Origin: Norana najaformis
Lineage: Eukaryota > Annelida > Clitellata > Crassiclitellata > Hormogastridae
DNA length: 64,000 nucleotides
Assembly: GCA_964023275.1 (NCBI GenBank)
Contig: OZ029914.1
Location: 44,137,937-44,201,936, forward strand
Direction: 5' to 3'
The notes beneath the pieces are model-generated. The model searched no databases. It was not told the origin of the DNA and was given only the letters and a program-made list of their open reading frames with translations. Position 1 is the first letter of the stretch; every line of letters begins with the position of its first letter. Both the position numbers and the translations under genes were made by a program. Shown here piece after piece: positions 34,689 through 64,000 of the stretch.

Positions 34689-34743
<55 letters not shown>

Positions 34744-35361: not shown

Positions 35362-35397
<36 letters not shown>

Positions 35398-35437
35398 TCT
35401 TATTGTTATTATTATTATTATATAACATATATTAGGA

Positions 35438-35486
<49 letters not shown>

Positions 35487-38400
35487 TGCGTTACATCCAT
35501 CAAATCACACTGATCACACACCATCAAAAGAGGACTTAGATCGTTGAATGCTTACAGTAAGTGTGGCTGTAGCGCTGCGCCGTTTGTCGTCATAAGCCGT
35601 GACCTGCATTCGGAAATATCCGTAGCTGTACTTGCGGTAGTCGGGTAGGTTTGTGCTGACGTATCCAGTGATTGGGTCAATCAGAAAGGCGTCAGGGACA
35701 TTCTGCTTACGACTCGAATCGTTTGGATCGTAGAAGTAGATGAAGCTAGGATCGAGACTGTAGTTGTGTTTGCCGTAGACTGGAGCATCGCAGTCGCCTG
35801 CGTACATCTGGATGAACTTCGTTCCAGCCGGAACGAAATCCAGTATGCCTGCACGAAGTAAGTAAGTAAGAAGTAACTAACCAACTAAGTAAGTAAGTAA
35901 ATGAACAGGTAAGTGAGTAAATAAGTATGTAAATAATCCATTTGTTAACACGCCATGTGTCTATCGCTGGGCGAGGAATCGTGGGCGCGGGTGAGTCACA
36001 GGTGTCAGTAGTTGCAATAATAATAATAATAATAATATTAATAATAATATTAGTAATAAAAATAAAGGAAAACACCGACTAGGTTTAGACTATAGCCTGT
36101 TGTGGGTATATATATATATATGTATGCATATATACACATGTGCATTTATCCATGTATGCATGTGTATGTATGCATACATACACACATGAATATATCCATG
36201 TACCCATGTATATAGGTATGTGTGTAACTTAAGACTTATATAGCACCATTTAAGCACCTCTCGATGGTGTCGACATTATTTTCCATGTAGTGATTGGCGG
36301 AGCTGTATGTAGACAATTACTGGCCTGTGTAGGCTACATCCTAATGTGATACCGTGTGATACGATGGATATCGTGCGGTGTTATATAACTCACTATAGTG
36401 CACTGTAATGTAAAGTATTCCCAACATGTTTTTATTATCATCGCTGTCATCGTCATCATCATGATCAGTTTTAGTGTCATTGTCTTCAATTTTGTTTCTT
36501 CGTCATCATAATTTTTGTTGTGACTGTACTCAAGGATCCTGAGTGATATTTGGTCGGAAATCCCTTGTGTTGACAAAAAATCTGGCATAATGTCGGCTTC
36601 CATTCTCTTGTTGTCGTGGAAAATAAAAAATATCGGGACGCAACATATCAGGAAACGTCTTCAGGAAATTCATTCCACAGCAATCCTCCCCTCATCACAG
36701 GGTGGAATAGCAGGAGAGCCAAACTTCGTAGGGCTTCCAATTTTACCCTTTTGTGGACGTAGCAGCATTGGTATTGTTAGAGGCGGTGGTAGTGATGGAA
36801 GTGGCAGTATGTTATTATTATTATTTTCAGTAGTACCAGTAGTAGTAGTTATTGTTTTGTTGTTGTTGTCGTTGTTATGCTTTTATGCGTCTGAACAGTT
36901 ATGATTAGTATAATTATGTGTTATGTGTCTATGCGTCGTGTGTTTATGAACGTACCTTCAGTAATAGAGGTGCCAATTCCCTTGCAGGTGCCCTCTTGAT
37001 TCGGGTCAAACGAAGGTCCGCTGTCATCGATGGGTTCGATGTAGATGACCACCTGTCTTGTGGCGCCCTTGTCAGCCATGCTTCCATTGTTTCTTTTGAC
37101 GGTGACGTTGAGCGTGACCATGCTCGTGCAGTTCCATAGCAGTCTCACCTTCGTCGTTATGTTTCCCGAGATGGGGTCAAGTTCAAATGGTGCCTGTCCG
37201 TTGTAGCATGCCTTTTTATCGTTGCCACCTACAAGTTTCATCACAGAAACTTACATGAAACTGTCTGATATTGGCACGTCGTTTGGAAATCATTTGCCGC
37301 CGAGAATCAGAGAAGGAGCCAGAGAAGAAGGCAAAGATATGAACAGAGACAGAAAAAGACAGCCGCACAAACCGACTGAGATAAAGGAAGACACTGAGAC
37401 AGTTATTGAGACAAAGGCAGAGACAGCGACAAAGACAGAGAGAGAGAAAGAGAAACTGAGATAGTGCGATAAACAAAGAGACAATCAGAGAGAGAGAGAG
37501 AGGCAGAGAGACAGGCAGCGACAGAAATAAAGACATAGACAACAACAGAGACATTGAGACAGACAGAAACCGGAAATCGTAAGTCTGTACTACGTTGAAA
37601 TTGAATCATCTTGGGCGGAAGTATGACTCCCTACCGGTTATTTCATAAACCATGTCCGTGTTGTTCGGTGGTTTGTCTAGAGAGCATGCCTGAATCGTTG
37701 TCACGTAGGAACCTGCATCCTCCTTCTCTTTAATACTTGCACCATGGGTAGAATTCAGCTGAAGAAAACAAAAGCATGTGAACATCCATGAGTTAACTTT
37801 ATTCGTCACAAGAAAGATCCACAAACAGGAAAAGAACCAAGAAAAACAAATTGAAAGAACCAAGACAGTCCCAACTATACCTTATGTGTCATTATACATG
37901 TTATAAATTTCCTGAGCTAGGCTACGAATTGACACTTCCGATTTGCAATGCAATTAGAGCATAATGATGAAACTACCATACCGCGAAACGAAAACTCTTT
38001 AAGAAATGAAGTTTTCTCAGGACTTAAACGCAAATAGAATAAACTCCCACCAGAACTACAATTATCTGACCCATCATATGAACTCACCAACACTTCACCT
38101 CTTGCAATTTCTGCGCAAGTCTTCCACTCAAAACTGAAAACATTCCTCTTCCACAAATCCTATCCTGATTCTTCCTCTTCCCTTTATCTCACTTTCCGGT
38201 TCAATTCCAAACATCATCTACCATAGCTACCGTCTGACTGTCTGCCTGTCTGACTTTTGGATCTTGACCTGGAACCAAACCCTTCCTGCCTAACGATTTT
38301 GCTCTGACTGAGCGCCTATGAATACGCTGGTTTCCGCGACTTTGCTTTCGTTGGGCGCTGTAGAAATCTCGAATTACGATTACGATGAGCAAAATCCAAG

Positions 38401-41400: not shown

Positions 41401-44400
41401 CTCTATCTCCCCCTCTTTTCCGCAAGCGCTTGAAGACCTTCTTATTTCCCAGTGCTTCTGGGTTGTAGGGCCGGCAGCGACTCTGAGGAGTTTACCTCGA
41501 AGTGACGCTTTATAAATTTTTGATTACATTACATTACATACATACATACATAGATACAACATACATACATTCACACTAAGATACACCATGCATACATACA
41601 TACATACATACATGCATGTATGTTAGATATGCATGTTAGCGCCTTGGTTTGTGAATGCCGGCTATGTTACCTGCGACATGAACCTTTCTCTGTCTTCCTA
41701 CCTATCTCTTCCCCAAGCACTCGAAGACAATTCTGTTCCCCAGCGGATCTAGATCATGGGGCCCGGATCGCCTCTGATGAGTTTATCTTGGAGTGGCTCT
41801 TTATAAATTCTTGATTACGATAACAATACTTACATACATATATATATATATATATACATGCATGCATGCATGCATACATACATACACATACATACAAAAT
41901 AAATAGATACATACACAGTTGAGTCCGAATCATCAGTCTGCCTGAACCCTTGCAAATTCCTTGCGATGTACTGTGATTTCATGTCACTTTAAGTTTTCTT
42001 ACGTGATTATTGCAATTTAATGTGTTTTAATTTCCCGTTATGAATAAAATCGCAGTTCACTTGTAGTGTATTGTTTTGTAGTGTATTGTTTTGTAGTGTA
42101 TTGTTTTGTAGTGTATTGTTTTGTTTTGTATTGTTTTGTAGTGTATTGTTTTGTAGTGTATTGTTTTGTAGTGTATTGTTTTGTAGTGTATTGTTTTGTT
42201 TTGTATTGTTTTGTAGTGTATTGTTTTGTAGTGTATTGTTTTGTAGTGTATTGTTTTGTAGTGTATTGTTTTGTTTTGTATTGTTTTGTAGTATATTGTT
42301 TTGTAGTGTATTGTTTTGTTTTGTATTGTTTTGTAGTGTATTGTTTTGTAGTGTATTGTTTTGTAGTGTATTGTTTTGTAGTGCATTGTTTTGTAGTGTA
42401 TTGTTTTGTAGTGTATTGTTTTGTAGTGTATTGTTTTTGTAGTGTATTGTTTTGTAGTGTATTGTTTTGTAGTGTATTGTGCTCTATTGTATTGCATCGT
42501 ATCCTCTCATCTCTCATCTGTGTTATGCCGCATTGTATTGCAATTGTAACTGCAACATAATAATACTAAGACAATTTCTATAGCGCAGTAACACGGCCGA
42601 GGCCGAAGAAAAAGGCGATGTAAATGAGTTCAAGCGACTATAGAAGAAATTAACTGCAATCAAAGGATAATTTGATAATTTAAACAGAAACGTTTTTAGC
42701 CCTTTATTAAACGTATCCAAGGATGGAGCGTTCTTCACGTGTTCGGGAGGCTATTCCACTCAGAAATCGCAATTGAGAAAGACATTTGTATAGCGCCTAC
42801 TAAGAATTTATTATAAGCTATATTGTATTGCACTGTACTGAACTTTATTACATTACACTGTATGATTTTTGGTAATTTTGCATTGTCTTGCCTATTGTAT
42901 TGTATTGTATTGTATCTATCTGTCTACCTGCCTGACCTTTGGAATTGTAAACATATGGAATTGTAAGCATATCATGAGCATATGGTTGCTTACCCTTTCC
43001 GTCGCCACCAACTATGGCATAGGTCATGTTGCCGACGTAGTAGTAATCTTTGCTTCTGGCATAAACGAGACCGATGGAGGTGTTGACAGGTGCTCGGTCG
43101 AGTGTGTAGAAAGTGAAGGTCGGCGGTTGAAATTCCGGAGGATAATTGTTGAACCAGTGAATTACGTTAATAGTGACCTACGGTGCCACAACGTAACGGT
43201 AAGGTAATCAATCGTTTGCTTATGTTTGCATATTTATATAGACTACAAGAAGTCTTTCGCTCATTTTGTATATTGTGTACCACTTATGCATAAGCTGCAG
43301 CTTTGTTACTGTAGCCAACGTTGAATTATCAACGTTAAAACAGTTTTAAAATACGCTGATAATGTTGTAATTTGAAAATAACGATTTTAACAATGTTTTG
43401 ACATACATCTTTATGTATGACAGAAATTGGGACACTTAGGATTTTTTGCAGGAATTGTGATTCCTTCAGAGTTTTCTCTGTGTCATTTTGCAATACAATC
43501 TCCCCATTGATACATATCAATTCTTTTTGTGGAGTACAATAAAGTGTGCCTCAGCTCAATTCCGCCAAATTTTAACAGCAGGCATTTCGCTTTGTTTGAC
43601 CTATCTGCTTCATTACATTGTTCACCTCACTTTTTTAATAACATTTCTATTGCTTTAGAATCATTCCATTTCTAAACATCATGCTCGGTACTATCGTTCT
43701 ACGTTTGACCTTTGGCCCATGACTAAGAATCGAACCTGACCATACCTGGACCATACCACACATTTAACCTCTTGTTTATCTACCCTTTCGCCCTCTTCAG
43801 TTTGACAGAAACTGAACTCACCACAACCGTTGCGCGTTGTATTGATGGTTTTCCTTCGACAAACGCCGAGCCCAGCAAACCATACTGTTGCATCAGTTTC
43901 ACATTATCTGGCTTACGAACGAGGATTTTGCCCTATTCATACAACAAAACGCAAATGCCTATGACAGCAGAGAAACATCAAATACACCGACTTCTAGAAA
44001 AGCGGACAACCTAGAAATTGTCAGCAAACATCAGGACGCCTTTGCTGGCCTGATTAGCTACATTGGTTAAAGCGTACGTCAAGGCTTGTAGTTAAGAAAC
44101 AGATTATTCAGTATTTTAGTATTTCTTCTGACTGAACAATGTATAATTTTTTGAATTTTAGTTTTTCCAAAGTAGTAGGGTTTTTCTTTTCTTTGTGGAC
44201 AGATGTTGTTCACATTTTAGTTAAGAATTGATTAGTTGCTGGTATATAAGTCATTAGCCATCGATATATTATTGTAGTATAGGCTGCTCTAAATTAGCGG
44301 GACCTTAGCTCCTTTTGGGTAGACCTTTGCATCCAGGTAAGTGTTTGTGTTATTTACATTTACAATGTTTCATTCTGTTCTTGCAGCAATACATATGCCG

Positions 44401-47400
44401 AATAAATAAGCCTATGTGCGTGAGTACAGTGGTTCGCATACCGATAGTGGCTATTTCAGAGATTTAAATCTCGGGCAAGCACGATCCATACACGGGGACC
44501 TTAAATGCCGCGACGCCCATTCAAACGGGCAACGGTGGTAAAGAATCTCACCGGATGAATTCATTGCAACATGAACAGTGAAGAGGCTATAGGTCGCTAT
44601 AGAAAACCGTATACACTAATGTTTACATTTGGAATAGGTAAGATATGCACACTGAAACACATAACTGCAAATCCTTCAAAACGTTACATAACAAACGGTT
44701 TTCAGGATATGGTATATTAAATAAATGCGTATAAATGTAATGCATACACTTTACATAAATTAATGTGTATATCAAAGTGTATCAAAAGAAGAACATAGGA
44801 CTATTATTTAATATGCCGTTGTTTTGTCGATGACATTCTTCTTCTTCTTCTTCTTCGTTCTTCTTCTTCGTCTTCTTCTTCCTTCTTCTTCTTCTTCCTT
44901 TTTCTTCTTCTTCTTTCTTCTTATTTTCTTTCTTCTTCTTTTAACTACTACTACTACTACCACCACTACCACTACCACTACTACTACTACTACCACCACT
45001 ACTTCTACCACTACCACTACCACTACTACTACTACTACCACCACTACTTCTACCACTACCACTACCACTACTACTACTACTACCACGACTACTACTACTA
45101 CTCAATAATAACAACGGACTCGCTCAATAACGTGTATATATGCTTGAAGGAACGTTACTTTGCCAGTCTAAGCTCTTTCATAATTCGATCGGATGACAGG
45201 TAGTGGTTGCATATACCAGGCGGTAGGCAGATGATAGAGCAACTGTGAAACTCCGTGAACATTTTAGTATCAGCTAGGGTCTATTACTAAACAAGATAGA
45301 CGGCATAAGGTATTGCTAACCGTTTTGTTTTCGATGTAGAAGTCGTCAGCGTTGAATCCCTCGAGGTTGTATATAATGGAAGTTGATGGTTGAGACAACT
45401 TAACTGTGATGGTTCCGACTACATCCCATTGTGACACATTGTTGTAAATCGTGAAGATGTAGTTCTGAAGAAAGCAGAAAATAACTCCATGAAAAATCCT
45501 GATTAGAAAGTAGTACATCCAATTCATATTAATGCAAGCAGTTAGGCACACGCTTGACAATCAAGAACCGTGCATTACTACAGTAATAATATGGGCTAGC
45601 TTATATTAATTACTACAACTTTTGAAATTGTCAATTAACGGGATTGTTATAATAATTAATCAACATGACTACTAAATGAGTAATAAGTACTTGAAAAATA
45701 TGACTACTTACAGTGTTTTTATACTATAGTAGCTTTATAGTATCAGACTATAATCAATAGTCTATAGTATCAGACTATAATCTTTATAATATCAGACTAC
45801 AGCCAAGTCTATAATATATTATATCAACTATAAAGTAGTTTTGTGTAGTCTATTAACTATAAAGTAGTTTTATTTAGTCTATTAACTATAAAGTAGTTTT
45901 GTTTAGTCTATTAACTATAAAGTAGTTTTGTTTAGTCTATTAACTATAAAGTAGTTTTGTTTAGTCTATTAACTATAAAGTAGTTTTGTTTAGTCTATTA
46001 ACTATAAAGTAGTTTTGTTTAGTCTATTAACTATAAAGTAGTTTTGTTTAGTCTATTAACTATAAAGTAGTTTTGTTTAGTCTATTAACTATAAAGTAGT
46101 TTTGTTTAGTCTATTAACTATAAAGTAGTTTTGTTTAGTCTATTAACTATAAAGTAGTTTTGTTTAGTCTATTAACTATAAAGTAGTTTTGTTTAGTCTA
46201 TTAACTATAAAGTAGTTTTGTCTAGTATATCAACTATAAAGTAGTTTTGTTTAGTCTATTAACTATAAAGTATTTTTGTTTAGTCTATTAACTATAAAGT
46301 AGTTTTGTTTAGTCTATTAACTATAAAGTAGTTTGTTTAGCCTATTAACTATAAAGTAGTTTTGTTGAAAATGGACAGTTACAGACAAATTGCTCATAGT
46401 GACAGTTGCACTTCGGGGTTGGACAGCTTTTGCTTTGCACTTACTGGTATTATAATAAAGCAGTTAAAACTTCACAACTAATTAATTAATCACAGTTTAA
46501 TGATTAATTGCAGTTCAACTGCTGCACTTTTCTCTGTTGAATCTAAGACGACTCACGCGCTGATCGAAGGTAGGTAGGTCGGCGTCTGAGCTTCTCACGT
46601 TGATGGTGACGGTGGCCGTTTGGGTGGCCACGCTCGGAAGATCAGCCGTCGCAGTAACGGTGTATGTCACGTTCACTGGAAGAGGCAGTTTCAGGTCCTT
46701 CAGGAACTGAGCAAGAGTTATCGTACCTACGAGAGGACACAGAAGAAAACTGCGATACACATATTGGTAAGCTTCTGTTTACAGATATTGATTATGCGTC
46801 AGTCTGTGAGCAACAGAAGCGAAAAGGCAAAAAGGTAAATTTAACATTCTTCTTTAAACGTCTTTCCGCATAAGCGTGGTCCTGAGGTAGAAGAATTATT
46901 GGCCGAGGAACAGACACGACGGCAGTAATACAGTTATATTACATCAATAATTACTTGTGAGTTCGTTCCCCAATGCACCGGGATTCGACACCAGGACACT
47001 GAGATGGCAGGCGAACATTTTAGCAATAAAGTGGCATGCACTCGACTTTGATAAATCGCACAACAAATAATCATAGCTCTGCATAAATATCCTACAGCAG
47101 TTTTATATGAATAAGTTTCAATATTGCATTGGAAGAAATCCAATCGAATGCAATCTATGAACTTCAAAAGCGCCGGTACCTCCAGTACACCAGACTTAAT
47201 CGATGGTTGTTTCCTGTGAAACCAGTCAGTAACTTACTATTATTCCTGCATTTGTTAGGCGCCACTATCCAATGATTAAGCATCAATCGATGGCGCTGAG
47301 CAATTGTGATTGAAGGACATGCTCAAAGTCCTTACACAGTAACTATCTTAGAGGATACTTGAACCCGTACCCGCCGCGTTACAAGCAAAGCCAAGAGCTC

Positions 47401-51400: not shown

Positions 51401-53571
51401 AACAAAAGTCGTACCTCTGTTAGCTATGGATTCGAGTTCAGTTACTTGAATGCTGGTAACGTTCGGATTGCAGACTGGAGGGTGGTTATTGGTGTCCTTT
51501 TCAAAACAGAGCAACGTTTAGAACGCTATTCTTTACTTTCTATGCCCTATCGGATCTGTATCCACGCTCAGTCACACAAGTTTCAGCCAATCACGCTCAA
51601 ATTAAAATATGTTTACATAAAAATATACTCTTAGGTAAACTCGAAAAGACTAAGCAAAATCTGGGACAATTAAACCGAATTTAAAAGTTTCTTTCCATAC
51701 TTATCTAACATTTATAATTTTTATAGTTTATAAAGGGTTCCTATAAAAAAGATTTCATATAATTACGTAACGATTTTCGAGAATTCTGACCCAAAGACAG
51801 AATTGTTATTAAATTTTACGTCTAAATATGATTTATGGTGCAAAACGTTTCTTTAACCCTCATCCACATTGGTCATAAAAGTATCGACTGACTCTTGATG
51901 ATGGATAAAGATGATTGACTGGGAACTTATGAAACGACCAGTGACCGGAGTAGCCCCCTATATATAAATGCCTGGTACATTAAGATAGTAGAAGTTTTCA
52001 GATTACATTGGATTAGACTGGATTTTAGTAGACTAGTCCAGATTAGATTAGGATTAAATGTGATGATTGACGAACAGAGAAAACACAGGAGTTAAACAAC
52101 TATGTTATATCTGAACTTACCTGTACGTTGATTCTTATGGTGAGATTGCTAGTCTGGTCAGTAGGTCCCCCTGAGCTAATGGCTTCAACGGTCACTTCAA
52201 AACTAAACAAAACATTGCAGAAACTGTTACTATGATCAATGTTCTCGTCTAGAAAAGAAAGGTTATAACACGCTGTTTTCACGAATTATGCTAAAGACGC
52301 GATCTTAAAGAGGGTCAAAATGAATACATTAATGTTAACGGCCGAGGCGAGCAATGTTAAAGTCGACGACTATAAAGATAAAAAGTGCTAAAAACGCAAT
52401 AAACAACGTTAGTTTTATTTAAGGTATGGACGAGTTTTGACTTAGAACTCATAATACTACAGAACTCATAATACTACTACTACTACTGCTAATAATAATA
52501 ATAATAATAATACTACTACTAATAATAATAGTAATAGTAATAATAATAATAACAATAATAATAATTATATGCATTCATTTTGTTCATTCCCCGGAGAATT
52601 TTTTAAATCGTGAAGGTCTATAAATACCTTGGGTAAAAATAATAGTAATAAGGATGCCCTTTGGATGGTAACAGGACAATAACCCCCGGACAATTACCCC
52701 CCGGACAATAACACCCGGACAATAACCCCCGGACAATAACCCCCCGTGCAAAAAACACCCCGGACAATTACCCCCTGTACTGATACAGTACATACAGTAA
52801 AGAGTAGACATGAAAGACTTACCATACATCAAAAACTAATTATTAGACAATTATTAGACAACTGGCAGAGAGTAGACACGAAAGACTTACCATACATCAA
52901 AAACTAATTAGGCCTATTAGACAATTATTAGACAACTGGCAGAGAGTAGACACGAAAGACTTACCATACATCAAAAACTAATTATTGACAATTATTAGAC
53001 AACTGGGCAGAGAGTAGACATGAAAGAATTACCAAACATCCAAAACTAAATATTGGACAATTATTAGACAACCTCCAAGGAAGAAGTATGCTGACTCCAA
53101 TGCACGGATTTTGGCCGTCATTAGCAACTACAATGAGTGCAATGTTCTTGACTATCTACGTGGAACAGCTCACAACTTTTTCTTTTAAGTTCAATAAACT
53201 AATAAACAATAAACAGCATTTTCTTTTACACATTTAATTTCATACTGTGACGTTGCATGGTTCTCCAGTATATGTCTAATAAATTAATATATAAACTGTA
53301 TGATTAATATACATTATTTGTATATTTATATAATTAATATATCAGTATAGGGGGTTACTGTCCGGGGGGTTATTTGCATGGGGGGTTATTGTCCCGGGGT
53401 TATTGTCCGGGGGTTATTGTCCGGGGGGTAATTGTCCGGGGGGTTATTGTCGTAGAAGCCTTTGGATGTAATCCTCTGGGTTAAAAATAATAATGATAAT
53501 GATGATGATGATGATGATAATAACAATAATAATAATAATAGCAGTAGTAGTAGTAATAATAAAAATATTAA

Positions 53572-53602
<31 letters not shown>

Positions 53603-54631
53603 TATTATTATTATTATTATTATTATTAGTAGTAGTAGTAGTAGTAGTAGTATTATTATTAGTATTATAGAGTAACACTTCAATTATGAAACGAATTCAT
53701 TGTTTCTGGAGCAACTAGAGCTGCTGTGGCGTCCAGGCTGGCACACTGGAAACAGGTCGACTAGCTGCATCTTCGAATCTCGTGATCTTGTCTGTAAGCG
53801 CCGTGGTGAAGAAGCAACCCTGATTTAGCGGTCGCGAAAGTGTAGAGCGTTCTGTGGGCGTTTCTTCGATGGAGCGCAAGAACTTCCGGTGTGGATCGGA
53901 CGAACATCCAGCGCCACCAACTCCCTCCTCTTCATCGCCGTCGTCGTCTGCTTCGAAGGCGCCTGCGTCGTGGGTTTCACTGACCCGAGCGTCGTCGTCT
54001 CCTCGACCTCGACCCGCCGGCTGACCTTCGACAGGCGGTAGAAGACAAGGGAAATTATGAGGAAGCGAAGAAGCATGGTCTGAATGGGTAGAATGTTCGT
54101 CGCACTGATCTGAGGCTGTCTTCCGGCCGGTGATTGTTCGCTGGAATTGCCAGTCTTCGCTTAAATCTGGCTCCAAGAATGTGCCATTAAAGGCAATCGC
54201 GTTAGCTCGCTGGATGGCAATGGAGAGGCGTTGGAACAGGAAAGAAGTCTCCCTCTTGTCTCCCGATACTTGGGTTAAATGGCGACCGATTTTTATTATT
54301 ATTTATTATTTATTATTTATTTTATTATTATTACTATTATTATTACTATTATTATTACTATTATTATTATTATTTTTATTATTATTATTACTACTACTAC
54401 TACTATTATTATATGCACAGATTTCGGGAGATGATAGGGGAACTATTTTCTATATCAGTGCTTATTATCTGCAGCTATCCACCTCTTCTATGCATTCGCT
54501 ATTTGCAGCATCGCTACCACCGACGAAACCACCCGGGAAGATTCGCCTTCCCAGAACTAAGTCCTCTAATTTTTGTACTCCTGATGGATCATATGTAACA
54601 ATAAGTAATAATAATAATTAATGATAATAAC

Positions 54632-55084: not shown

Positions 55085-58000
55085 CAGCAGCAGCAGCAGA
55101 TGAAGAAGAAGAAGAGCAGCCCCCTTGAGCTAACCCCGAAACGCAGTCATGTGTACGAATTGCTAGCGACTTCATTTACTCGGCCTCCGCACATGAGGGT
55201 GGGTGACCTGTCCTCTTCCTCGCCGATTGATCTTACCGCCGATAGTTTACGTTCAGTTTACTTATTTTATATCTGATTTCGAGGGGACGAAATTGAAGCA
55301 GAATTTTCGAATCATCCTTCTGCGCTGGCGCGGAATTGGACTAACCGACCTCATGGCCGCACCTTGCACCATCGGCACTACTTTAAATTCACTCAAACCT
55401 ACAGAAAACTCTGCGGCTGGCGTTAGGCCCGTCTGGCCTTCGAGGACAACGACATCCATGACCTCTGGGTTGAACCGTGGACCACTGTGTGAGCTGTCGA
55501 CGACCTGGATACGAAGTTGCGCCGTTGAGCTGAGACCCGTCTGGTCCGTTGCTTGGATCGTCAGGACGATGTGCTGTCCGGTTGTGTTGTAGGACACTTT
55601 CTTTGCCAGGGTGATGATCGCCGATCCGTCAGTGGCCGAAGTGATAGCGAAACTATGCATAGTAAACATTTACGACGCTGCTTTTTCAACTCGGGCTCGA
55701 TTATTTATAATTATCAAAGATTTTGAACTGAAGTTAATTATAATTGATTATAATTATCAAATGCCACCCCGCATATCAAGACGCTGAGCTTTCGCCAAAG
55801 TGAAATTCTGTTCTAGCACAATGTATGCCTGTATAAATGTATGTATGCATGCATGCGTCATGCATGTCTGCATATATGTATTCATGTATGTATGCATATA
55901 TGCATGCGTGTGTTTATGTATGCATGCATGTATGTTTGTAGGAATGTATGTATGCATGCATCGATATGTGTATGTATGCATGTCTGCTTTGTCGTATCAC
56001 AACTGTTACAATACAGTCAAACCTGTAAATTCAATGTAAAGTATTCTGCCCAATATTCAAAACCAGTCTGTTCGCTTAATCAAACCGAATCAAACCCGAA
56101 AAAAATCACTATAATATTAATAGGGGTTGAGTGAAAGAGGAAAAGGAATGAGTACATCAGACAGAAATTGGGAGTGGCATGTATATCTGACAAGGTATGA
56201 GAAGCCAGGTTGAGATGGTACGGTCATGTGAAGAGGAGAGGAGGAAAACTGCATTAAAAGAATTATGACAGCTGAGGTTTACGGACGCCGCAGTCGTGGA
56301 CGACAAAAGAAGAGATAGGGAGACATGATTCAGCAAGATCTAAAGCTCCTCAGATTGAAGAAAGAAGATACTGAAGACAGAAACAAATGGAAAAGAAGGA
56401 TTCGTGTGGCTGACCCCTCTCCTAGGAGGGATTAATTCCAGCCAGTAGGAAGAAGAAGAAGAAGTTTCTCATTTTGGCAAATATTAAACTTCATTAAAAT
56501 GATGAAGTACAGGAAATAAGACGATGGTTTATAAAGCGCATTTAGGCGAAACAATAAAACTGCACGAACATATTAATTTGAGCACAAGAAAAAAACTGGC
56601 TTTCGTTGTGGCAATTGCTACTTACTAGCCGTTGCTGTCTCCTTTAATAATTGAGTAAGTTATGCGTCCCGCTTCGCCAGTATCCGGATCACTTGCCTAC
56701 AGAAATGCATCAGGAAACGTGAGACGGGTTGAAAGCGAATCATAACGAAAGGCACATGACGGACTATTGCTGGAATCGTTCGGATGGTTAGCGATGTTAG
56801 AATTATGTGCTAAATGTTATAAAAAATTTAGGTAATATGTGGCAATAAGGAAGAAATGATCACTCTTCGAGAGCTATATATTACTTTGCCTGTTCGCAGT
56901 ATATTGACGAGTAACTGCTTTTGTTAGACCGAGCTCTTAATCCTTTCTATCCTGGATTTAATCAGTAAATTCTTAAAGATAGAAGATAATCAAGAGAGGT
57001 GGTCCACTGGCGTTTCTGCGCTTGAACCAAAATATCTCAGGACAGACCATAGATTTAAAGTAAGGATAGAGTGAAATATGGATTGGAGTCTGGGACGGAG
57101 TGAGAAAAATAATTAAGACAAATGTCAATTCCGCAACATGAGGGGTGTACATCCATGTCGTCCCTCACGAATCCACCAGAAGTTCCTTTCAACGACTGTA
57201 GACCCGTCAGATAATGCTAAGCGATTTGTGTGCAATTAACTTGCAATCAAGTTACATGCAATATGCACAAATATTAGAGTACCTCACTTTAAGCAAGTTA
57301 ACATATGCACATTTGTATTGATTCAGATACTACGTCAAGTCTTAATGCATGTAAACAAAAGGTTGATAATGCCAAACAATCTAAGTGCGATTAACTTGAA
57401 AATACTCTGAATGAATTATGAGCAAAGGTCAGGGCAAAGACTATGGACTTGTTGACAGTGCCAAACGATCGCGTTACGCGGAATTTTTTCTTCTTCTTCT
57501 TCTTCTTCTTTCTGGCTGGAATTAATCCCGCCTAGGGAAGGGTCAGTCACATGAATCCTTCTTTTCCATTTGTTTCTATCTCCAGCATCTTCTTTCTTCA
57601 GTCTACGAAGCTTCAGGTTTTGTTGAATCATGTCTCCCCATCTCTTCTTTTGTCTTCCTCGACTGCGGCGTTTGTAAACCTCAGCTGTCATAATTCTTTT
57701 AATGCAGTTTTCCTCCTCTCTCTGCACCACATGGCCATACCATCTCAACCTGGCTTCTCGTACCTTGTCAGATATACATGCCACTCCCAATTTCTGTCTG
57801 ATATACTCATTCGTTAGGCTGAAGGTATTGTGAATAAAGCGCAAGAGAATCAACTAGAAACGAATTCGAAATGTCTTACCTTGACCTGGTCGGTGATTAG
57901 CGACCCCACAACGCGATTGTCGACAAGAGACGTGAGGTACTCAACCTTAGTGAAGATGGGAGCGTTTGTGTTTCGGCTGAGTACGTTAATCGTTACCGTT

Positions 58001-61100: not shown

Positions 61101-64000
61101 GTGGGCATACTTATTATATGTGGTGGGCATACTTACGATGATCTTGAAGAGGTACTGTCCGGAGGGTATGAGGGCTCGATTGATGTTTCCGTTTGTTCGA
61201 ATCTTGGCCGAGGTAATGTTGGTCACTTGATTAAAGGTAGCAGCTTCCAGGTAAAACCAACTTCTGCTATCTAAACATTGGAAAAGTAGATAAGCAAGTA
61301 AGCCTAAGTTGCAGCCATTAGTAAAATTATCAGCAAATGAATTGTATGTAAGGTAAGAATCATATCAAAGGCCCTGGCAGGCAATAGAAAACCAACTGAC
61401 AGACCTACTACTTCTAGTAATCGTTAGAAAAGTTTTATTTAATTAACATCTGCACTAATTTCCATTTAATTGCAGTTTCAGATAATTTATTCTCTACTAT
61501 TCTTTGTCATAATCCTGAAGGATTATTTTTACATCGGATACTTATTTTACATAGCTCTTACTAACTCTTACTAACTCTTAATAACTCGTACTATAGGTTC
61601 CAGTCGAAACAAATTACTTAAGTTACGATTCAGTTTTGTTATCCACAGTAGATGTAGGTAAATATCTTCATAGAAAGATTGTCCTACGTAGGAATAGTAT
61701 TAAATTTCGTAATAAATAATTCTGAATTAACACCATCTACTATTAGACCTGAGCTGACTATAATTTTGTTTTGGCGCTAACCAGTAATAGAAGAACATAA
61801 ATTAATGCAATTGCATAAATTTCCTAATAGTTGTGAACTGAAACCATCGTTATCCTCTAATATCAACCACATCGAAGATTAACAGAGCAACACTCTCTAA
61901 TTTTTGCAAATCAGATGAATCAATTCCAACTCGAGTAAAATCATAAGAAATTACTTAAGCATTAAATCAAAGGAAGTAGCTCAGTTTAAGAAAGGAAAAC
62001 AGTAGTTTAGGAAGACATCTTACCGTCTGAGATTGCGAAAGTCAGGGGACTTGGATTAACGTTGTTGCCGCTTTTTGCTTGAATCGAGCCAAGGTCTGTT
62101 GTCTGCAAAATACAGATTTGTAATATCAGGAGTCGGATGGGCTAAATGATCAACAATGATCTTCTTCTTGGAAATACATACAAGGCTCGATTTACGCGTA
62201 TTTGCCCATAAATGCATATGTATTTTTAAATTTTCAACACCAATACTTGTGTTGTTTGTGTACGACTGTATGTATGTAATATTATAATATATTATTTATA
62301 TTTATGTAGGCATATACGTATATCATTATGTGTATATGAATGCATGTATTTCTATATGTATGTATAGTCAGGTATGTGTGCAAATGTTTCTCCATATTAT
62401 ACACGTAATTAAATCTATATACTTGTAGCTATAGAGATATCCTTGACAATTTGTAGACTATGACTTCACGTGGTAAAGTATCCCATATCCCACAAGTGAG
62501 ACGTAGAGGAGGCCCTTATTTCCTTTTCTTCGCTCTTTAGCCGGTAATGGACGAATCCCAAGGTCCTGGACACGGAGCCAGTGCATCGCAGGACTTGCCG
62601 TTTACTTCCCAGCTTACGCCGGTACCAAATTATACTGCTTGGTGACAGAGGTACGGTGTGCGCAAACAACTTGCCCAAGGTTGTTACACGGAGTCGAACC
62701 CGCAACCGCATGTAGTAATTCATAAAATATGTAGGCTTGACTAACACTTGGTGCGCTTTCGTTGACCACCAGGATGATGGGTGTGTTGACGAAGATGGGC
62801 CTTTGGTCATACTGACTTTCGATGTTGACAACCAGCGTGGCAGTGTCCGACAAAGGGGGACTACCACCGTCCTAAAAGAAACCAGCTTTACGAATTGAAA
62901 TAGAATCGCTATTTTTATAAGATACGGTAATTTAGACATTAATTGCATGCCTGAATTAATGTTAGTCCTTAAAGACGTGACCTTTAGGGCTGAGAGATTA
63001 TTCGGCTGAATCGCAAAACACGACTTCAGTTATCGAACAACCGGACAACATTTTCTTAACGTTGCGATCTTTCAACGTTCAATCAGTCAATCTTTATTTT
63101 AAAATTAATGCAATTTTGAATGTTGCAGAGCTTGAGCAATCCACTCACTCACTCATCTACTCCCCCATCCACTCAATTACCCATCCACTCACCCATCCCC
63201 TCACTCACCCATCCACTCCCCCATCCACTCACTTACCCATCCACTCACCCATCCCCTCACTCACCCATCCACTCACCCATCCACTCACTCACTCATCCAC
63301 TCACCCATCAACTCACCCATACACTCACCCATTCACTAACTCACCCATCCACTCACCCATCCACTCAATTACCCATCCACTCACCCATCCCCTCACTCAC
63401 CCATCCACTCCCCCATCCACTCACTTACCCATCCACTCACCCATCCCCTCACTCACCCATCCACTCACCCATCCACTCACTCACTCATCCACTCACCCAT
63501 CAACTCACCCATACACTCACCCATTCACTAACTCACCCATCCACTCACCCATCCACTCAATTACCCATCCACTCACCCATCCCCTCACTCACCCATCCAC
63601 TCCCCCATCCACTCACTTACCCATCCACTCACCCATCCCCTCACTCACCCATCCACTCACCCATCCACTCACTCACTCATCCACTCACCCATCAACTCAC
63701 CCATACACTCACCCATTCACTAACTCACCCATCCACTCACCCATCCACTCACTTACCCATCCACTCACCCATCCCCTCACTCATCCATTCACTCTCTCAC
63801 ACAATCTTTACTTTACCAAGTGAAGTAATTCTCGGTCTCCTACCTGAGCACGGATGACAACGTTGTACTTCGTGATGTTTGTGCGAGCAAGACTGCGAAG
63901 GGTGGTAACAATCCCCAAGTAACTATCATCTTTGCCTTGAACCGGCTGCTTACTTATCAGGAACGTCTGGCAGGTCTGCAAGGCCTAAATAACACACAGC
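29520..64000 (-). CDS. CDH23-like: Giant CDH23-like cadherin, 33 exons assembled, incomplete at both ends
   Basis: Type I membrane cadherin. I joined 33 exons by GT-AG borders; every phase agrees and no stop interrupts about 1,624 codons. Order: exons 1-27, about 13 cadherin (EC) repeats (63984 to 35556); exons 28-31, membrane-adjacent domain and TM (34167 to 30673); exons 32-33, cytoplasmic microexons. The membrane-adjacent segment (VFIVREGQRLKFVFDKDPSS ... VIQDNDVLSVEEGTKLF ... LYTAYNV) aligns by eye with that of vertebrate CDH23 (RIKIVIN..., VVNRDTN..., LFRNYNV). CDH23 and PCDH15 form tip links in hair cells; relatives of this type sit on microvilli in other animals. The signal peptide and further N-terminal repeats lie beyond 64000; the C-terminus was not found. 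Exon details are in the entries for each block. Confidence 0.88.
29660..29760 (+). mobile_element. Degenerate tRNA-SINE with CORE-like segment
   Basis: 'ctcgggttcgaagcttgctc' has B-box-like GGTTCGAAGC, followed by 'ccttgagcaagtccttcac', close to the conserved SINE core seen in the family E elements. Confidence 0.4.
30121..30152 (-). CDS. CDH23-like: Cadherin exon 32, 32-nt cytoplasmic microexon
   Basis: Acceptor 'gtttgcag' and donor 'gtaagt'. It reads (V)YTRGYLKNRP(Y), entering in phase 2 and leaving in phase 1, so it links the transmembrane exon to exon 33 without a frame break. The joined cytoplasmic start is CCFWPVYTRGYLKNRPYIVL: basic residues right after the membrane, as expected for a type I protein. 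Confidence 0.65.
30315..30632 (+). mobile_element. LINE 3' end, family D (LRWYGHV type)
   Basis: Open frame ISDKVREAWLRWYGHVMRRE, CIKRIMTEEIYGRRSRG, then RWVDMIQQDLKLLRLKKED: the standard C-terminal sequence of endonuclease-type LINE proteins. 'ggagggattaattccagcc' and a (GAA)n tail follow. Other copies are at 56130 (+), 57488 (-) and 40688 (-). It lies in the intron just 3' of the transmembrane exon. Confidence 0.85.
30673..30806 (-). CDS. CDH23-like: Cadherin exon 31: Trp-rich transmembrane exon
   Basis: Acceptor 'ttgaatttcag', donor 'gtaagt', phase 0 to 2. It reads ACYVKTTTHWWSGYWFLWW, then LLIALALFIFVVVALILNIL, then ACCFWPV. One clear membrane span with five Trp in the first half and a Cys-Cys-Phe-Trp end that could be palmitoylated. 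Confidence 0.85.
30859..31018. repeat. Second copy of the 28486-28650 tandem-repeat segment
   Basis: 'caacacaatgcaaccattat' through 'cagtcagaaacaacaat' match copy 1 in the same orientation, 2.37 kb away. It starts about 50 bp from the transmembrane exon. Confidence 0.85.
31019..31616. other. Cadherin intron 30, nothing recognised
   Basis: No exon or known repeat seen; AT-rich. Confidence 0.4.
31617..34167 (-). CDS. CDH23-like: Cadherin exons 28-30: CDH23-type membrane-adjacent domain
   Basis: Exons 34079-34167, 32706-32807, 31617-31764, phases 0/2, 2/2, 2/0. Translation: VFIVREGQRLKFVFDKDPSS, then TNNFLNMYNKSISASGAVLN, HVDENAFYYFNMTDMCFQVI, and WKDQWEKLYTAYNVQGGPR. The order of elements (xRLKFVx, long helix, beta strands with VIQDNDVLS, final YNV helix) is that of the CDH23 membrane-adjacent domain. 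It follows directly on the last EC repeat (ATLT|VFIV). Confidence 0.82.
31973..32156. mobile_element. (AAT)n followed by fragment of the 'FLFQRLS' segment
   Basis: (AAT)n at 31973-32030, then a frame reading ELGRKLTNVT ... ETSYLFQRLSVAVQCGNANC, clearly related to 34745-34870 and 54175-54290. It is truncated after about 120 bp. Confidence 0.65.
32189..32433. repeat. (ACAACAACAATC)n tandem array
   Basis: About 20 units of a 12-bp repeat alternating ATC and ATA; it opens long artefactual Thr-Ile and Val frames. Confidence 0.95.
32434..33424. other. Cadherin intronic DNA around exon 29
   Basis: Apart from exon 29 (32706-32807) I see no coding sequence or recognised repeat. Confidence 0.4.
33425..34043. 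repeat. 41-bp minisatellite next to cadherin exon 28
   Basis: About 15 copies of TGTTATGTTATGTAACATCA + TCACATGTTGATGTGGCGAA + C. Variants differ by single bases (CACATG/CGCATG, GTTATG/GTTAAG). Each unit carries the near-palindromes GTTATGTAAC and CATCACATGTTGATG. The array ends 35 bp from the exon 28 donor. Confidence 0.95.
34205..34740. repeat. Cluster of (ATT)n, (TAG)n and (AAT)n tracts
   Basis: (ATT)n at 34207-34265, (TAG)n-(AAT)n at 34437-34567, (AAT)n at 34690-34740, separated by short AT-rich sequence. Confidence 0.95.
34741..35360 (+). mobile_element. 'FLFQRLS' segment, copy 1, flanked by (AAT)n on both sides
   Basis: The frame begins KKIGRHLTQASGDKRETSFL, then FQRLSIAIQRSNAIAFNGTF, and passes through EPDLSEDWQFQRTIT. 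A second frame (SRRVEVEETSTLGSAKP, TTTAMKRRELVVLDVRP) is also kept between copies. The other full copy is 53700-54295 on the opposite strand. It looks like a degenerate retroelement-encoded segment; the family is not identified. It lies in the intron between exons 27 and 28. Confidence 0.65.
35361..35487. repeat. (AAT)n / (ATT)n tract
   Basis: (AAT)n, short (ATT)n, 'ataacatatattaggaatat', (AAT)n. The motif 'atataacatatattaggaat' also precedes the (AAT)n at 34672-34690, so this block is a repeat of that one. Confidence 0.9.
35556..41095 (-). CDS. CDH23-like: Cadherin exons 22-27: Cys-containing membrane-proximal EC repeats
   Basis: Exons 40875-41095, 39660-39839, 38863-38970, 37635-37758, 36956-37228, 35556-35848. 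Shown by YFKVDPVTGVVSTRQ, FFIDPVSGNMTTNG, FELDPISGNITTK, FLIDPITGYVSTN: four successive 'DPxTG' strands. Cysteines appear repeatedly (VCITL, RCISL, DLCLG, QACSL, KACYNG, LWNCTS, GTCKG, GDCDAP) where earlier repeats have few, suggesting disulfides. N-glycosylation sequons are frequent. No calcium linker motif remains except DPNQEG-like remnants. Confidence 0.85.
35860..36005 (-). mobile_element. (ACTT)n-tailed retroposon, family G, at cadherin exon 27 acceptor
   Basis: 'gaagtaagtaagtaagaagt' begins about 6 bp from the exon 27 acceptor and continues to 'aatccatttgttaacacgcc' and 'cgaggaatcgtgggcg'. On the gene strand the (ACTT)n tail forms the pyrimidine-rich stretch before the AG. Confidence 0.7.
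36010..36240. repeat. (AAT)n and ATGT/ATAC-rich microsatellites
   Basis: (AAT)n at 36015-36060 and imperfect ATGT/ATAC repeats at 36105-36225. Confidence 0.8.
38040..38393 (+). mobile_element. LINE 3' end with RT remnant, family A
   Basis: The frame SPLAISAQVFHSKLKTFLFH is the final reverse-transcriptase helix. The family A 3' UTR ('ttttggatcttgacctggaa', 'tttgctttcgttgggcgctg') and tail 'aattacgattacgat' follow. This copy links the RT remnant to the family A tail. Confidence 0.8.
39968..40115 (-). mobile_element. LINE/SINE 3'-tail, family B
   Basis: 'aatgtaaatgtacaaggttt', 'tatagcgaccgtatggcctc', 'tcaatgaatttatcaggtga'. The tail reads (ACATTT)n on minus. Confidence 0.75.
40430..40676 (-). 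mobile_element. CORE-like tRNA SINE, family E
   Basis: Shares 'gacgaatcccaaggtcctgg', 'ccagtgcatcgcaggacttg', 'ccgttttacttcccagctga' and 'aaattatactgcttggtgac' with 59465-59700 and 62468-62705. This copy lacks the tRNA head. Confidence 0.7.
40688..40800 (-). mobile_element. LINE 3' end, family D, short
   Basis: 'aatccctcccagggagggat', 'cgaatccttcttttccattg', 'cagtatcttctttcttcagt' match the minus-strand view of the LRWYGHV family. Confidence 0.75.
41171..41280. repeat. (CATA)n microsatellite with (CCGT)n edge
   Basis: (CCGT)n then imperfect (CATA)n. Similar CATA tracts lie at 41530-41615 and 41830-41915. Confidence 0.9.
41281..41540 (+). mobile_element. LINE 3' end with RT remnant, family C
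   Basis: The frame LLWNGLHNDLRQELLTLSPP and FRKRLKTFLF is the RT C-terminus. 'gaagtgacgctttataaatt' and (TTACA)n tail follow. Confidence 0.8.
41625..41830 (+). mobile_element. LINE 3' end, family C
   Basis: 'tcatggggcccggatcgcct', 'ttggagtggctctttataaa', 'ttcttgattacgataac'. This is a second family C copy in tandem with 41281-41540, separated by CATA repeats. Confidence 0.7.
42060..42480. repeat. 15-bp minisatellite TGTTTTGTAGTGTAT
   Basis: About 28 units, with TTGTTTTGTA variants at regular spacing. The unit length is a multiple of three, so four long reading frames on the two strands stay open. I regard none as a gene. Confidence 0.95.
42481..42993. other. Cadherin intron 21, no gene
   Basis: The minus-strand frame at 42523-42738 has an RT-like end (TFNKGLKTFLFKLS), so part of this is another old LINE fragment. 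The rest is TATTGTATTG-rich. Confidence 0.5.
42994..48772 (-). CDS. CDH23-like: Cadherin exons 16-21: divergent EC repeats lacking Ca motifs
   Basis: Exons 48631-48772, 47555-47788, 46557-46726, 45321-45464, 43822-43932, 42994-43177. Repeats remain recognisable by FRIDPTNGTIIV, PVGTVLYPEM, VTATADLPSVATQTATVTI, DADLPTF, NYIFTIYNNV, GKILVRKPDNV, VTINVIHWFNNYPPEF. The calcium motifs (DxNDN, DRE, DxD) are absent. The exon 16 donor is GTTCGT, just before an in-frame TAG. Exon 20 (37 codons) was found only because exons 19 and 21 left a half repeat between them. Confidence 0.83.
43178..43821. other. Cadherin intron 20, nothing recognised
   Basis: No repeat family or extra exon seen between exons 20 and 21. 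Confidence 0.4.
44465..44640 (+). mobile_element. LINE/SINE 3'-tail, family B
   Basis: The only plus-strand copy: 'gatccatacacggggacctt', 'aaagaatctcaccggatgaa', 'gaggctataggtcgctatag', 'cactaatgtttacatttgga'. Confidence 0.75.
44830..45108. repeat. (CTT)n followed by (CTACTACCACCA)n
   Basis: About 110 bp of nearly pure CTT then about 160 bp of CTA/CCA repeats, with a roughly 63-bp higher-order period in the second part ('ctaccaccactacttctacc' recurs). One strand is almost all pyrimidine in the first part. Confidence 0.95.
45830..46370. repeat. 29-bp minisatellite in cadherin intron 18
   Basis: About 18 copies of GTCTATTAACTATAAAGTAG + TTTTGTTTA, very uniform in the centre and diverged at both ends. 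Confidence 0.95.
47215..47425 (-). mobile_element. tRNA-derived SINE, family G
   Basis: On minus: 'ggtagccgattggttagagc' (A-box TAGCCGATTGG), then GGGTTCAAGTATC about 45 bp on (B-box like), a body with 'gctcagcgccatcgattgat', and the end 'ggcgcctaacaaatgcagg', close to the (ACTT)n-tailed family at 22529, 28960 and 35860. Confidence 0.7.
48045..48225 (+). mobile_element. SINE family F body
   Basis: 'ggtgagggagaggactgact', 'cctccctcatatgccgaggc', 'catggttacctctcaaggaa' match the minus-strand element at 21369-21782. Confidence 0.65.
49166..56696 (-). CDS. CDH23-like: Cadherin exons 8-15: best-conserved EC repeats
   Basis: Exons 56626-56696, 55382-55652, 54690-54859, 52121-52202, 51415-51496, 50415-50602, 49608-49734, 49166-49323. 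Canonical pieces: KASDPDTGEAGRITYSI, LTIQATDQTGLSSTAQLRI, VQDTNNHPPVC with TELES, INATDEDS, DNFDIDYRTGLISYA, VLAIDEGSPPLTGTAMVYV, VNENTTINSIIGRV. The exon 9 donor is weak (AAA|GTAGTG) but keeps phase and yields SEFKASPLERDRMISY. After this block the linkers degenerate (SVFRPPVF). Confidence 0.87.
49343..49478 (-). mobile_element. LINE/SINE 3'-tail, family B
   Basis: 'aatgtgaatgtacaggtttt', 'ctatagtgaccgtatgacct', 'caatgaatttatcgggtgag'. It begins about 20 bp beyond the acceptor of cadherin exon 15. Confidence 0.75.
49770..49829 (+). mobile_element. LINE 3'-tail, family A, short
   Basis: 'gcttggcattcgttgggcgc', 'tgtaaaaatctcgagattac', 'gattacgatt'. It lies about 35 bp from the acceptor of exon 14. 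Confidence 0.75.
49870..50010 (-). mobile_element. LINE/SINE 3'-tail, family B
   Basis: 'ataaatgtaaatgtacctgc', 'tctatagcgaccgtatgcct', 'gtaaatttatcgggtgagac'. Confidence 0.75.
50120..50400 (+). mobile_element. LINE 3' end, family A
   Basis: 'cttgaaaacactcatcatcc', 'actcttggatcttgacctgg', 'gaataaggaggttcccggga', 'cgctgttgaaatctcgagtt', tail 'acaattacgattac'. It ends about 14 bp from the exon 13 donor (exon edge 50415). Confidence 0.75.
50603..51414. other. Cadherin intron 12, nothing recognised
   Basis: No repeat family or exon that I can name. Confidence 0.4.
52440..52580. repeat. (CTA)n/(AAT)n tract
   Basis: Imperfect CTA and AAT repeats in cadherin intron 10. Confidence 0.85.
52658..53468. 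mobile_element. Foldback element with repeat-built inverted termini and 10-bp direct repeats
   Basis: The left terminus (about 52672-52793) is tandem GGACAATAACCCCC units; the right terminus (about 53346-53452) is the reverse complement, GGGGGTTATTGTCC. The two match almost base for base, ending in 'tgtactgatac' / 'gtatcagtata'-like sequence. The interior has three to four ~66-bp units ('agacatgaaagacttaccat', 'acatcaaaaactaattatta', 'gacaactggcagagagtag') and AT-rich DNA. CCTTTGGATG flanks both ends (52658-52667 and 53459-53468). No transposase frame is present. Confidence 0.8.
53490..53672. repeat. (ATG)n/(AAT)n/(ATT)n/(TAG)n tract
   Basis: Mixed trinucleotide repeats directly left of the 'FLFQRLS' segment copy 2. 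Confidence 0.9.
53700..54295 (-). mobile_element. 'FLFQRLS' segment, copy 2, flanked by trinucleotide tracts
   Basis: Reverse-oriented relative of 34741-35360, very similar in sequence (MEPDLSEDWQFQRTIT at the start of the frame in both), with an internal replacement around 54040-54120. (ATT)n-type repeats lie immediately on both sides. Confidence 0.65.
54296..54412. repeat. (ATT)n/(ACT)n tract
   Basis: Imperfect ATT, TTATT and ACT repeats. Confidence 0.9.
54993..55105. repeat. (TAG)n-(CAG)n-(GAA)n tract
   Basis: About 30 TAG/TGG repeats, then CAG and GAA repeats, which form the tail of the neighbouring SINE. Confidence 0.9.
55105..55265 (-). mobile_element. SINE family F body
   Basis: 'cacatgagggtgggtgacct', 'gtcctcttcctcgccgattg', 'atcttaccgccgatagttta' correspond to the family F body at 21480-21600. 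Confidence 0.6.
55815..55995. repeat. ATGTATGC-type microsatellite
   Basis: Imperfect ATGT/ATGC repeats. Confidence 0.9.
56130..56465 (+). mobile_element. LINE 3' end, family D
   Basis: 'aggttgagatggtacggtca', 'aactgcattaaaagaattat', 'aggagggattaattccagcc', tail (GAA)n. The frame is broken (stop at 'agatagggagac'). Confidence 0.85.
56697..57487. other. Cadherin intron 7, left part, nothing recognised
   Basis: No exon or repeat family seen. Confidence 0.4.
57488..57822 (-). mobile_element. LINE 3' end, family D
   Basis: On minus, the open frame SDKVREARLRWYGHVVQREE, CIKRIMTAEVYKRRSRG, RWGDMIQQNLKLRRLKKEDA. It is inverted relative to 56130-56465, about 1 kb apart, and its (CTT)n tail faces that copy. 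Confidence 0.85.
57880..63984 (-). CDS. CDH23-like: Cadherin exons 1-7: EC repeats with partly canonical Ca sites
   Basis: Exons 63844-63984, 62746-62871, 62024-62102, 61137-61270, 59868-60050, 58886-59059, 57880-58047. Translation shows RAQDGGSPPLSDTATLVV, linker-like QYDQRPIF, XEX-like VVNES, then VIIQDTNAYAPTF (DxNxxAP linker), VTDLDADNAYFDI (DxD) and LSRNTNAPIF. The donor of exon 5 is GTGGCA (exon end GAT), chosen because it alone keeps phase. Exon 4's donor (GTAAGT at 61136) is the first unit of a 22-bp minisatellite. The exon 1 acceptor could be 63985 or nine bases further in. Confidence 0.87.
58048..58885. other. Cadherin intron 6, (ATC)n only
   Basis: (CAT)n at 58083-58130; otherwise nothing recognised. 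Confidence 0.4.
59465..59700 (-). mobile_element. CORE-like tRNA SINE, family E
   Basis: On minus: 'gtgagggttcgacttcgtgt' (B-box GGTTCGACTTC), 'aacgaccctggtcaagttgt', 'gtgcctctgtcaccaagcag', ending 'ttgagatctgggatacttta'. It parallels the MIR-type core (ACCTTGGGCAAGTTACTTAA). Confidence 0.7.
60690..60925. repeat. Degenerate ~17-20-bp AGAGAATGTGGCCTAA repeat
   Basis: About ten diverged units such as 'acagaatgtggcctaaaaga' and 'aagagaatgtggcctaacgg'. Confidence 0.75.
61028..61136. repeat. 22-bp minisatellite made of 5' splice-site copies (cadherin exon 4)
   Basis: Five units 22 bp apart. On the gene strand the functional one reads C|GTAAGTATGCCCACCA and the other four read A|ATAAGTATGCCCACCA. 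Confidence 0.95.
61271..62023. other. Cadherin intron 3, nothing recognised
   Basis: AT-rich; no exon or repeat family seen. Confidence 0.4.
62468..62705 (-). mobile_element. CORE-like tRNA SINE, family E, best copy
   Basis: On minus: 'ttgcgggttcgactccgtgt' (exact pol III B-box GGTTCGACTCC), 'aacaaccttgggcaagttgt', 'acctctgtcaccaagcagta', 'taatttggtaccggcgtaag'. There is no A-box, so the head is truncated. It ends about 40 bp from the exon 2 donor. Confidence 0.75.
63135..63792. repeat. 12-bp CCATCCACTCAC array with 192-bp higher-order unit
   Basis: About 55 units. The rare variant ACTCAATTAC recurs at 63171, 63363 and 63555, exactly 192 bp (16 units) apart. The order of the other variants is identical within each 192-bp block. 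Confidence 0.95.

What the first reader, a model, noticed from the sequence alone, without database searches (positions are those of the whole stretch)
52658..53468. Foldback transposon with termini built from GGACAATAACCCCC units
Two ~110-bp inverted termini made of the same 14-15-bp repeats enclose ~550 bp, and the whole is flanked by perfect 10-bp direct repeats CCTTTGGATG. That size fits a target-site duplication of a Mutator-like or foldback element. The G-rich strand (runs of 4-6 G) could also form quadruplexes. I know no named family with this terminus.
Basis: partly seen in the sequence, partly recalled or inferred. Interest (0 to 1): 0.75.

Follow-up and report, generated by a model that had tools for sequence, protein, structure and literature searches.

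The report
Small foldback Mutator transposon, non-autonomous
This is one of many copies of a small jumping gene that has lost most of its own machinery; its ends are stacks of a 14-15-letter repeat, and fuller relatives in the same genome show that it belongs to the known Mutator group of transposons.

Summary
The element is 52667-53459 (793 bp), flanked by an 8-bp target-site duplication, CTTTGGAT; the reported 10-bp repeat is that duplication plus one matching base on each side. The genome (608 Mb, 17 contigs, probably an animal) holds many copies. Of 40 loci examined, 35 have both ends recognised; 31 of those carry copy-specific duplications (17 of 8 bp, 14 of 9 bp), against 0 of 1190 mismatched flank pairs. 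One copy sits in a minisatellite whose other units are the empty site.

All 40 loci match the last 38 codons of a transposase gene, some brokenly. A 1.9-kb relative with the same arms carries a broken FLYWCH + MULE transposase gene (Pfam 2.7e-8, 3.8e-14). The family is an internally deleted, non-autonomous Mutator/foldback element.

The closest described kind is Tm1 of root-knot nematodes: 7-bp asymmetric ends, GGA, ~14-bp tandem units, 8-10-bp duplications, Phantom-type transposase. Two further MULE families here, 39% and 46% identical in the matched transposase region, share this end plan with other units.

New member of a known kind. Quadruplexes are possible only with long loops.

The parts
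52659..52666 (.). left target-site duplication CTTTGGAT
   Evidence: ends defined by 35 copies
52667..53459 (+). whole non-autonomous foldback MULE copy, 793 bp
   Evidence: 463 first-look candidates, 40 scored, in the same genome
52667..52673 (+). left asymmetric 7-bp terminal motif GGTAACA, before the first GGA
52674..52775 (+). left arm: tandem 14-16-bp units GGACAATAACCCCC, one degenerate (containing GTGCAAAAAACACC)
52801..53072 (+). internal array of a 68-bp repeat, 3.9 copies, containing AGACAATTA
53072..53188 (+). remnant of the last 38 codons of the transposase gene plus stop (PPRKKYADSNARILAVISNYNECNVLDYLRGTAHNFFF*)
   Evidence: the same residues end or nearly end a MULE transposase frame in L068, L069 and L070
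53193..53213 (+). three AATAAA motifs just after the stop, a probable transposase polyadenylation region
   Evidence: sequence read directly; function inferred
53350..53452 (-). right arm: tandem 14-16-bp units on the minus strand
53453..53459 (-). right asymmetric 7-bp terminal motif; GCTTCTA here, GGTTCTA in most of the 35 copies
53460..53467 (.). right target-site duplication CTTTGGAT

Best explanation
This is an internally deleted, non-autonomous copy of a Mutator-superfamily (FLYWCH + MULE transposase, Phantom/Tm1-like) cut-and-paste DNA transposon with foldback-type ends. Shown: discrete shared ends, copy-specific 8- or 9-bp duplications, an empty site lacking one duplication, a graded series from a 1.9-kb relative with a transposase gene through ~1.0-kb forms to forms mostly of 0.54-0.9 kb, and a remnant of the transposase C-terminus in the short forms. 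Inferred: a transposase supplied in trans binds the tandem 14-15-bp units of each arm, cuts at the 7-bp terminal motifs and joins the ends to staggered cuts 8 or 9 bp apart. The arms gain and lose units by slippage or unequal exchange, which would explain why unit number differs between arms and copies. The window copy is a passive insertion beside a TAA microsatellite and probably does nothing for the host.
For: Copies: 463 first-look candidates, 40 scored. Ends and duplications: 31 of 35 with both ends, against 0 of 1190 mismatched flank pairs. Empty site: L021 lies in a minisatellite whose other units hold GTTATTCCC once; L045 aligns to ~79%-identical window repeats once one 8-bp copy is removed. 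Transposase: the 38-aa remnant has 150 scored matches of 378 candidates. L069 carries FLYWCH (PF04500, 2.7e-8) and MULE (PF10551, 3.8e-14) pieces between the same arms, flanked by GGATTTTA. L068, L070 and L074 are 995-1052-bp intermediates; 8-bp repeats flank L068 and L074, and a 9-bp repeat with one mismatch flanks L070. Unit number varies from 4 to 9 per arm.
Against: No intact transposase of this exact family was seen, though only the C-terminal 262 aa were searched for, 146 of 657 candidates were scored, and not every long copy was opened. Only two matches cover the whole query: the query's own gene, broken by frame shifts, and its 97%-identical duplicate, with a TAG. These two share flanks, so they are one insertion later duplicated. 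4 of 35 copies (L009, L013, L014, L036) showed no duplication by the rule used, and 5 of 40 loci lacked a recognised end. The 40 loci are the best matches, so they are not a random sample. The empty site was not shown for the window copy itself. L069 has lost its left 7-bp motif.
Confidence: 0.94

Rival explanations
1. Foldback element of another superfamily (P-type such as Galileo, hAT or Merlin), since 8-bp duplications and repetitive arms also occur there.
For: 17 of 31 duplications are exactly 8 bp.
Against: 14 of 31 are 9 bp. The gene between the same arms matches FLYWCH and MULE models, and the 38-aa remnant is its C-terminus.
Confidence: 0.03
2. Chance or slippage-made inverted satellite arrays next to microsatellites, with no transposition.
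For: The window copy is flanked by TAA-rich simple repeats, and the arms are tandem arrays.
Against: The same outer boundaries in 35 copies at different places, 31 with copy-specific duplications, and a minisatellite interrupted exactly at one duplication.
Confidence: 0.01
3. The arms matter mainly as DNA structures (quadruplex or cruciform) with a host regulatory role, the transposon origin being incidental.
For: Runs of 4-6 G at ~14-bp spacing and 91%-complementary arms.
Against: No quadruplex motif under the usual loop limit of 7, only with loops up to 12. Unit number varies between copies. No host role was tested.
Confidence: 0.02

Closest known systems
Tm1, Mutator/Foldback family of Meloidogyne root-knot nematodes (PMC3169594, abstract and passages seen)
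   Same: Asymmetric 7-bp outer motifs, then GGA, then a variable number of 13-15-bp tandem units (mostly 14). 8-10-bp duplications, mostly 9. A form with a FLYWCH + MULE transposase, and MITE-like short forms.
   Different: Unit sequence (CGATTCAGTATCCGC there, GGACAATAACCCCC here). Some Tm1 forms carry a histone hairpin, not looked for here. Duplications here are 8 and 9 bp in similar numbers.
Phantom group of MULEs (Marquez and Pritham 2010, paper not held; known here through passages of PMC6446971 and PMC3169594)
   Same: FLYWCH + MULE transposase (in PMC6446971's table the finger may be none, FLYWCH or SWIM); duplications of 8-10 bp; some have foldback-like ends.
   Different: No tree placed this transposase inside Phantom, because no reference sequences were on hand.
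Rehavkus / FB-NOF of insects (FB link recalled; table entry for Rehavkus in PMC6446971)
   Same: Inverted ends of up to 400 bp and 9-bp duplications; related to MULEs.
   Different: Rehavkus has a PHD finger; here a FLYWCH finger was found.
TU elements of sea urchin (recalled only)
   Same: Outer inverted domain of ~15-bp tandem repeats and 8-bp duplications (recalled).
   Different: Much longer arms (recalled); no comparison was possible.

Membership tests
Mutator superfamily (MULE) | transposase with MULE catalytic domain | tested here: met
   PF10551 3.8e-14 in L069 between the same arms; the window copy holds only the C-terminal remnant
Mutator superfamily (MULE) | 8-11-bp, mostly 9-bp, duplications | tested here: met
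   17 of 8 bp and 14 of 9 bp among 35; the 8-bp share is high
Phantom / Tm1 type | N-terminal FLYWCH finger | tested here: met
   PF04500 2.7e-8 in L069
Phantom / Tm1 type | grouping with Phantom in a transposase tree | not tested
   no reference transposases held
Tm1 | 7-bp asymmetric ends + GGA + 13-15-bp tandem units | tested here: met
   GGTAACA/GGTTCTA, then GGA, then 14-15-bp units; compared with PMC3169594 passages
Tm1 | Tm1 unit sequence CGATTCAGTATC | tested here: not met
   unit is GGACAATAACCCCC; so it is of the Tm1 kind, not a Tm1 element
Foldback (structural class) | inverted ends built of internal tandem repeats of variable number | tested here: met
   4 to 9 units per arm over 35 copies, counted in the outer 230 bp with one mismatch allowed
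Rehavkus | PHD finger | tested here: not met
   FLYWCH found instead; no PHD match in the three pieces of the broken L069 gene nor in the open 469-aa frame of the related L075

The most novel reading that the evidence does not exclude
The ~14-bp period of the tandem ends is an old, conserved part of this transposase lineage: three MULE families of one genome, and by published description Tm1 of nematodes, keep a 7-bp cap and ~14-bp units while the unit sequence changes. The arrays would then be ranks of transposase-binding sites that co-evolve with the FLYWCH domain, not independent accidents of arm expansion as has been proposed for foldback families (proposal cited in PMC3169594).
Probability: 0.35. 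Interest if true: 0.5.

Novelty: new member of a known kind. Interest (0 to 1): 0.33.

Why it matters
It turns a sequence-only guess into a defined transposon family with ends, duplications and a transposase lineage. Finding the same end plan in three diverged MULE families of one genome bears on whether foldback ends arise repeatedly by array expansion or are inherited and functional. The family also gives many internally deleted copies of different divergence for studying how non-autonomous forms arise.

Tried and rejected
Searches that led nowhere: the terminus pattern in viral contigs, 0 hits. A 161-aa transposase piece in viral contigs, 13 pattern matches and no relative confirmed. Pfam with the 38-aa remnant alone, no family, and with the 161-aa L068 piece, only a sub-threshold unrelated match; the middle 173-aa piece of L069 also matched nothing. 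A literature search for molluscan foldback elements gave 2 papers, listing only. A search for TU elements returned only the Tetris paper, listing only. A 2026 arthropod MULE paper was searched for five terms and one methods passage came up. Pfam on five minus-strand frames that looked like cadherin exons supported one of five, below the curated cut-off, so that reading is weak.

Considered and rejected: P-, hAT- or Merlin-type origin, because of the transposase match. A chance array, because of the duplications and empty site. A 10-bp duplication, because the element's ends are fixed by the other copies. TSD length tied to the element's last two bases: 8-bp class 9 CC and 8 GC, 9-bp class 12 CC and 2 GC; suggestive but not tested further.

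Full report
What is there. All 13 window matches to the unit at up to 3 mismatches lie in the element, against a shuffled mean of 2.76. The window is G000:C2:44137937-44201936 of a genome of 608 Mb in 17 contigs.

Copies and ends. A DNA search of the own genome gave 463 first-look candidates, of which the best 40 were scored; counts are lower bounds and the sample is of best matches. I fetched the 39 other loci with flanks. With the window that makes 40 loci; both ends were recognised in 35, and 5 (L017, L026, L039, L040, L046) were dropped because the pattern did not find an end. The element starts GGTAACAGGACAATAACC and ends GGTTATTGTCCTAGAA(C/G)C. Next to these ends, 17 of 35 have a perfect 8-bp duplication and 14 of 35 a 9-bp one (10 perfect, 4 with one mismatch). 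The other 4 (L009, L013, L014, L036) fail the rule, though L013 has 9 of 10 matching at length 10. By the 8/9-bp rule 31 of 35 pass, against 0 of 1190 mismatched left/right pairs. In the window copy this makes the element 52667-53459 and the duplication CTTTGGAT.

Empty sites. I joined the flanks of the 35 copies, leaving one duplication, and compared them with the window and the loci in hand. L021 lies in a minisatellite of about 31 bp; its joined flanks align across the junction to other units of the same array (12 alignments looked at), which hold GTTATTCCC once, while the element is bounded by GTTAATCCC and GTTATTCCC. L045 lies in an older dispersed repeat; of 6 alignments across its site, 5 (identity 75-79%) have no gap within the 8-bp site and one has a 2-base gap there, and the repeats differ from the site in several bases. 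This second case is weaker. No empty site was found for the window copy.

Transposase. The interior has no long frame, only a short one that ends in a stop followed by AATAAA motifs. Its 38 residues have a match in all 40 loci: 36 over the full length, L045 over 28 residues, L012 with a gap, L033 in two pieces and L042 from residue 4; L031 and L038 have an internal stop. They have 150 scored matches of 378 candidates in the genome. L068 (1052 bp), L070 (1014 bp) and L074 (995 bp) have the same termini and more of the transposase C-terminal region, by match to the L069 frame at 83-88%. L068 is flanked by CTTGCAGT and L074 by GCTAGGTT on both sides; L070 by GCCGAAAGG/GCCAAAAGG. In L069 a ~1.9-kb relative carries, in three separate overlapping frames, a FLYWCH finger (PF04500, 2.7e-8), a middle piece without a Pfam match, and a MULE domain (PF10551, 3.8e-14). 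Its arms are of the same units and it is flanked by GGATTTTA, but the left 7-bp motif is missing. L072, 97% identical, has the same flanks, so it is a duplication of the same insertion. The L069 gene is broken, and L072 has the same kind of broken frames. I describe this only and mended nothing.

Related families. The 262-aa frame gives 148 matches (146 of 657 candidates scored) in the genome. Besides the family itself (roughly 75-97% identical), a second family is about 39% identical; 9 of the 148 rows show a 469-aa open frame, 6 of them with no stop in the match. Its member L075 matches MULE (2.1e-13) and FLYWCH (2.3e-7), and L077 and L078 have the same 469-aa frame. Its ends are arrays of the 14-bp unit CCCGACAAAATAGC, with caps GGTGACC and GGCGCAC, and two of the three loci read have 9-bp duplications, ACCGAATAT and GTATAGTAA; in L075 no right-arm unit was found. 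A third, L076 (46% identical over the matched region; MULE 2.7e-15, no FLYWCH in the frame searched), has inverted arms of a degenerate 14-15-bp unit near CCTGGACATTTCCCC, ends GGGATCC and GAGTCTA each followed by GGA, and is 2170 bp long with the perfect 9-bp flanks GGTTGAACT. The L075 and L076 frames are 39% identical to each other over 384 columns. The same plan, a 7-bp cap and then ~14-bp units with a GACA core and a run of C, is therefore present in three diverged families; the third rests on one locus.

How it works. Cut-and-paste transposition by a trans-acting MULE transposase is inferred from superfamily membership. The role of the tandem units as transposase-binding sites is also inferred; no binding was tested. 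Divergence of the 35 copies from their plurality consensus is 0.9-8.0%, with 12 of 35 at 1.5% or less. This suggests a fairly recent burst, though the consensus leans towards the commonest group. No intact transposase of this family was seen, within the limits. The second family's transposase might act on it; this is speculation.

Comparison. PMC3169594 (abstract and passages seen) describes Tm1 with asymmetric 7-bp motifs, GGA, 13-15-bp tandem units, 8-10-bp duplications (45 of 53 elements there) and a Phantom-type FLYWCH + MULE transposase. The architecture agrees in each of these points; the unit sequence differs. PMC6446971 (passages) lists Phantom with 8-10-bp duplications and FLYWCH in some members, and Rehavkus with a PHD finger. 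Repbase is not on hand, so whether this exact family is already named is unknown.

Quadruplex idea. With loops up to 7 no quadruplex motif is found on either strand; with loops up to 12 the right arm on the plus strand and the left arm on the minus strand match. It is possible but not needed.

Verdict. The finding is real, correctly guessed, and of a known kind. The added point of some interest is the shared end plan in three families.

Noticed in passing
L075, L077, L078: A second FLYWCH-MULE family with a 469-aa open frame and 14-bp tandem ends (CCCGACAAAATAGC); two of the three loci have perfect 9-bp duplications.
   Followed up: partly
L076: A third MULE family (46% identical over the matched region) with a degenerate ~14-15-bp tandem inverted end and perfect 9-bp flanking repeats GGTTGAACT.
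   Followed up: partly
31 duplications: 9-bp duplications begin with G or C in 13 of 14, and 8-bp ones end in C or T in 15 of 17; this may be a weak target preference or an end-definition effect.
   Followed up: no
window 34600-35500 (+) and 53600-54500 (-): Two repeats in opposite orientation, 82% identical over 848 columns, each next to TAA-type microsatellites. One borders the element.
   Followed up: partly
window 35514-60101 (-): Five minus-strand open frames look by eye like cadherin-repeat exons; Pfam supported one of five (55265-55669, PF00028 1.3e-4, below the curated cut-off). The element may lie in an intron of such a gene, unproven.
   Followed up: partly
window 5721-7169 and 26552-27178 (+): Open frames with multiple C2H2 zinc fingers (PF00096 3.1e-39 and 3.2e-19).
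   Followed up: partly
window 33450-34044, 42061-42480, 45822-46366, 63139-63794: Long minisatellites with 41-, 15-, 29- and 28/192-bp periods.
   Followed up: no
C16:3039347 and C16:3221220: Two 97%-identical copies of the 1.9-kb relative share the same flanks, so they are a segmental duplication rather than two insertions.
   Followed up: partly
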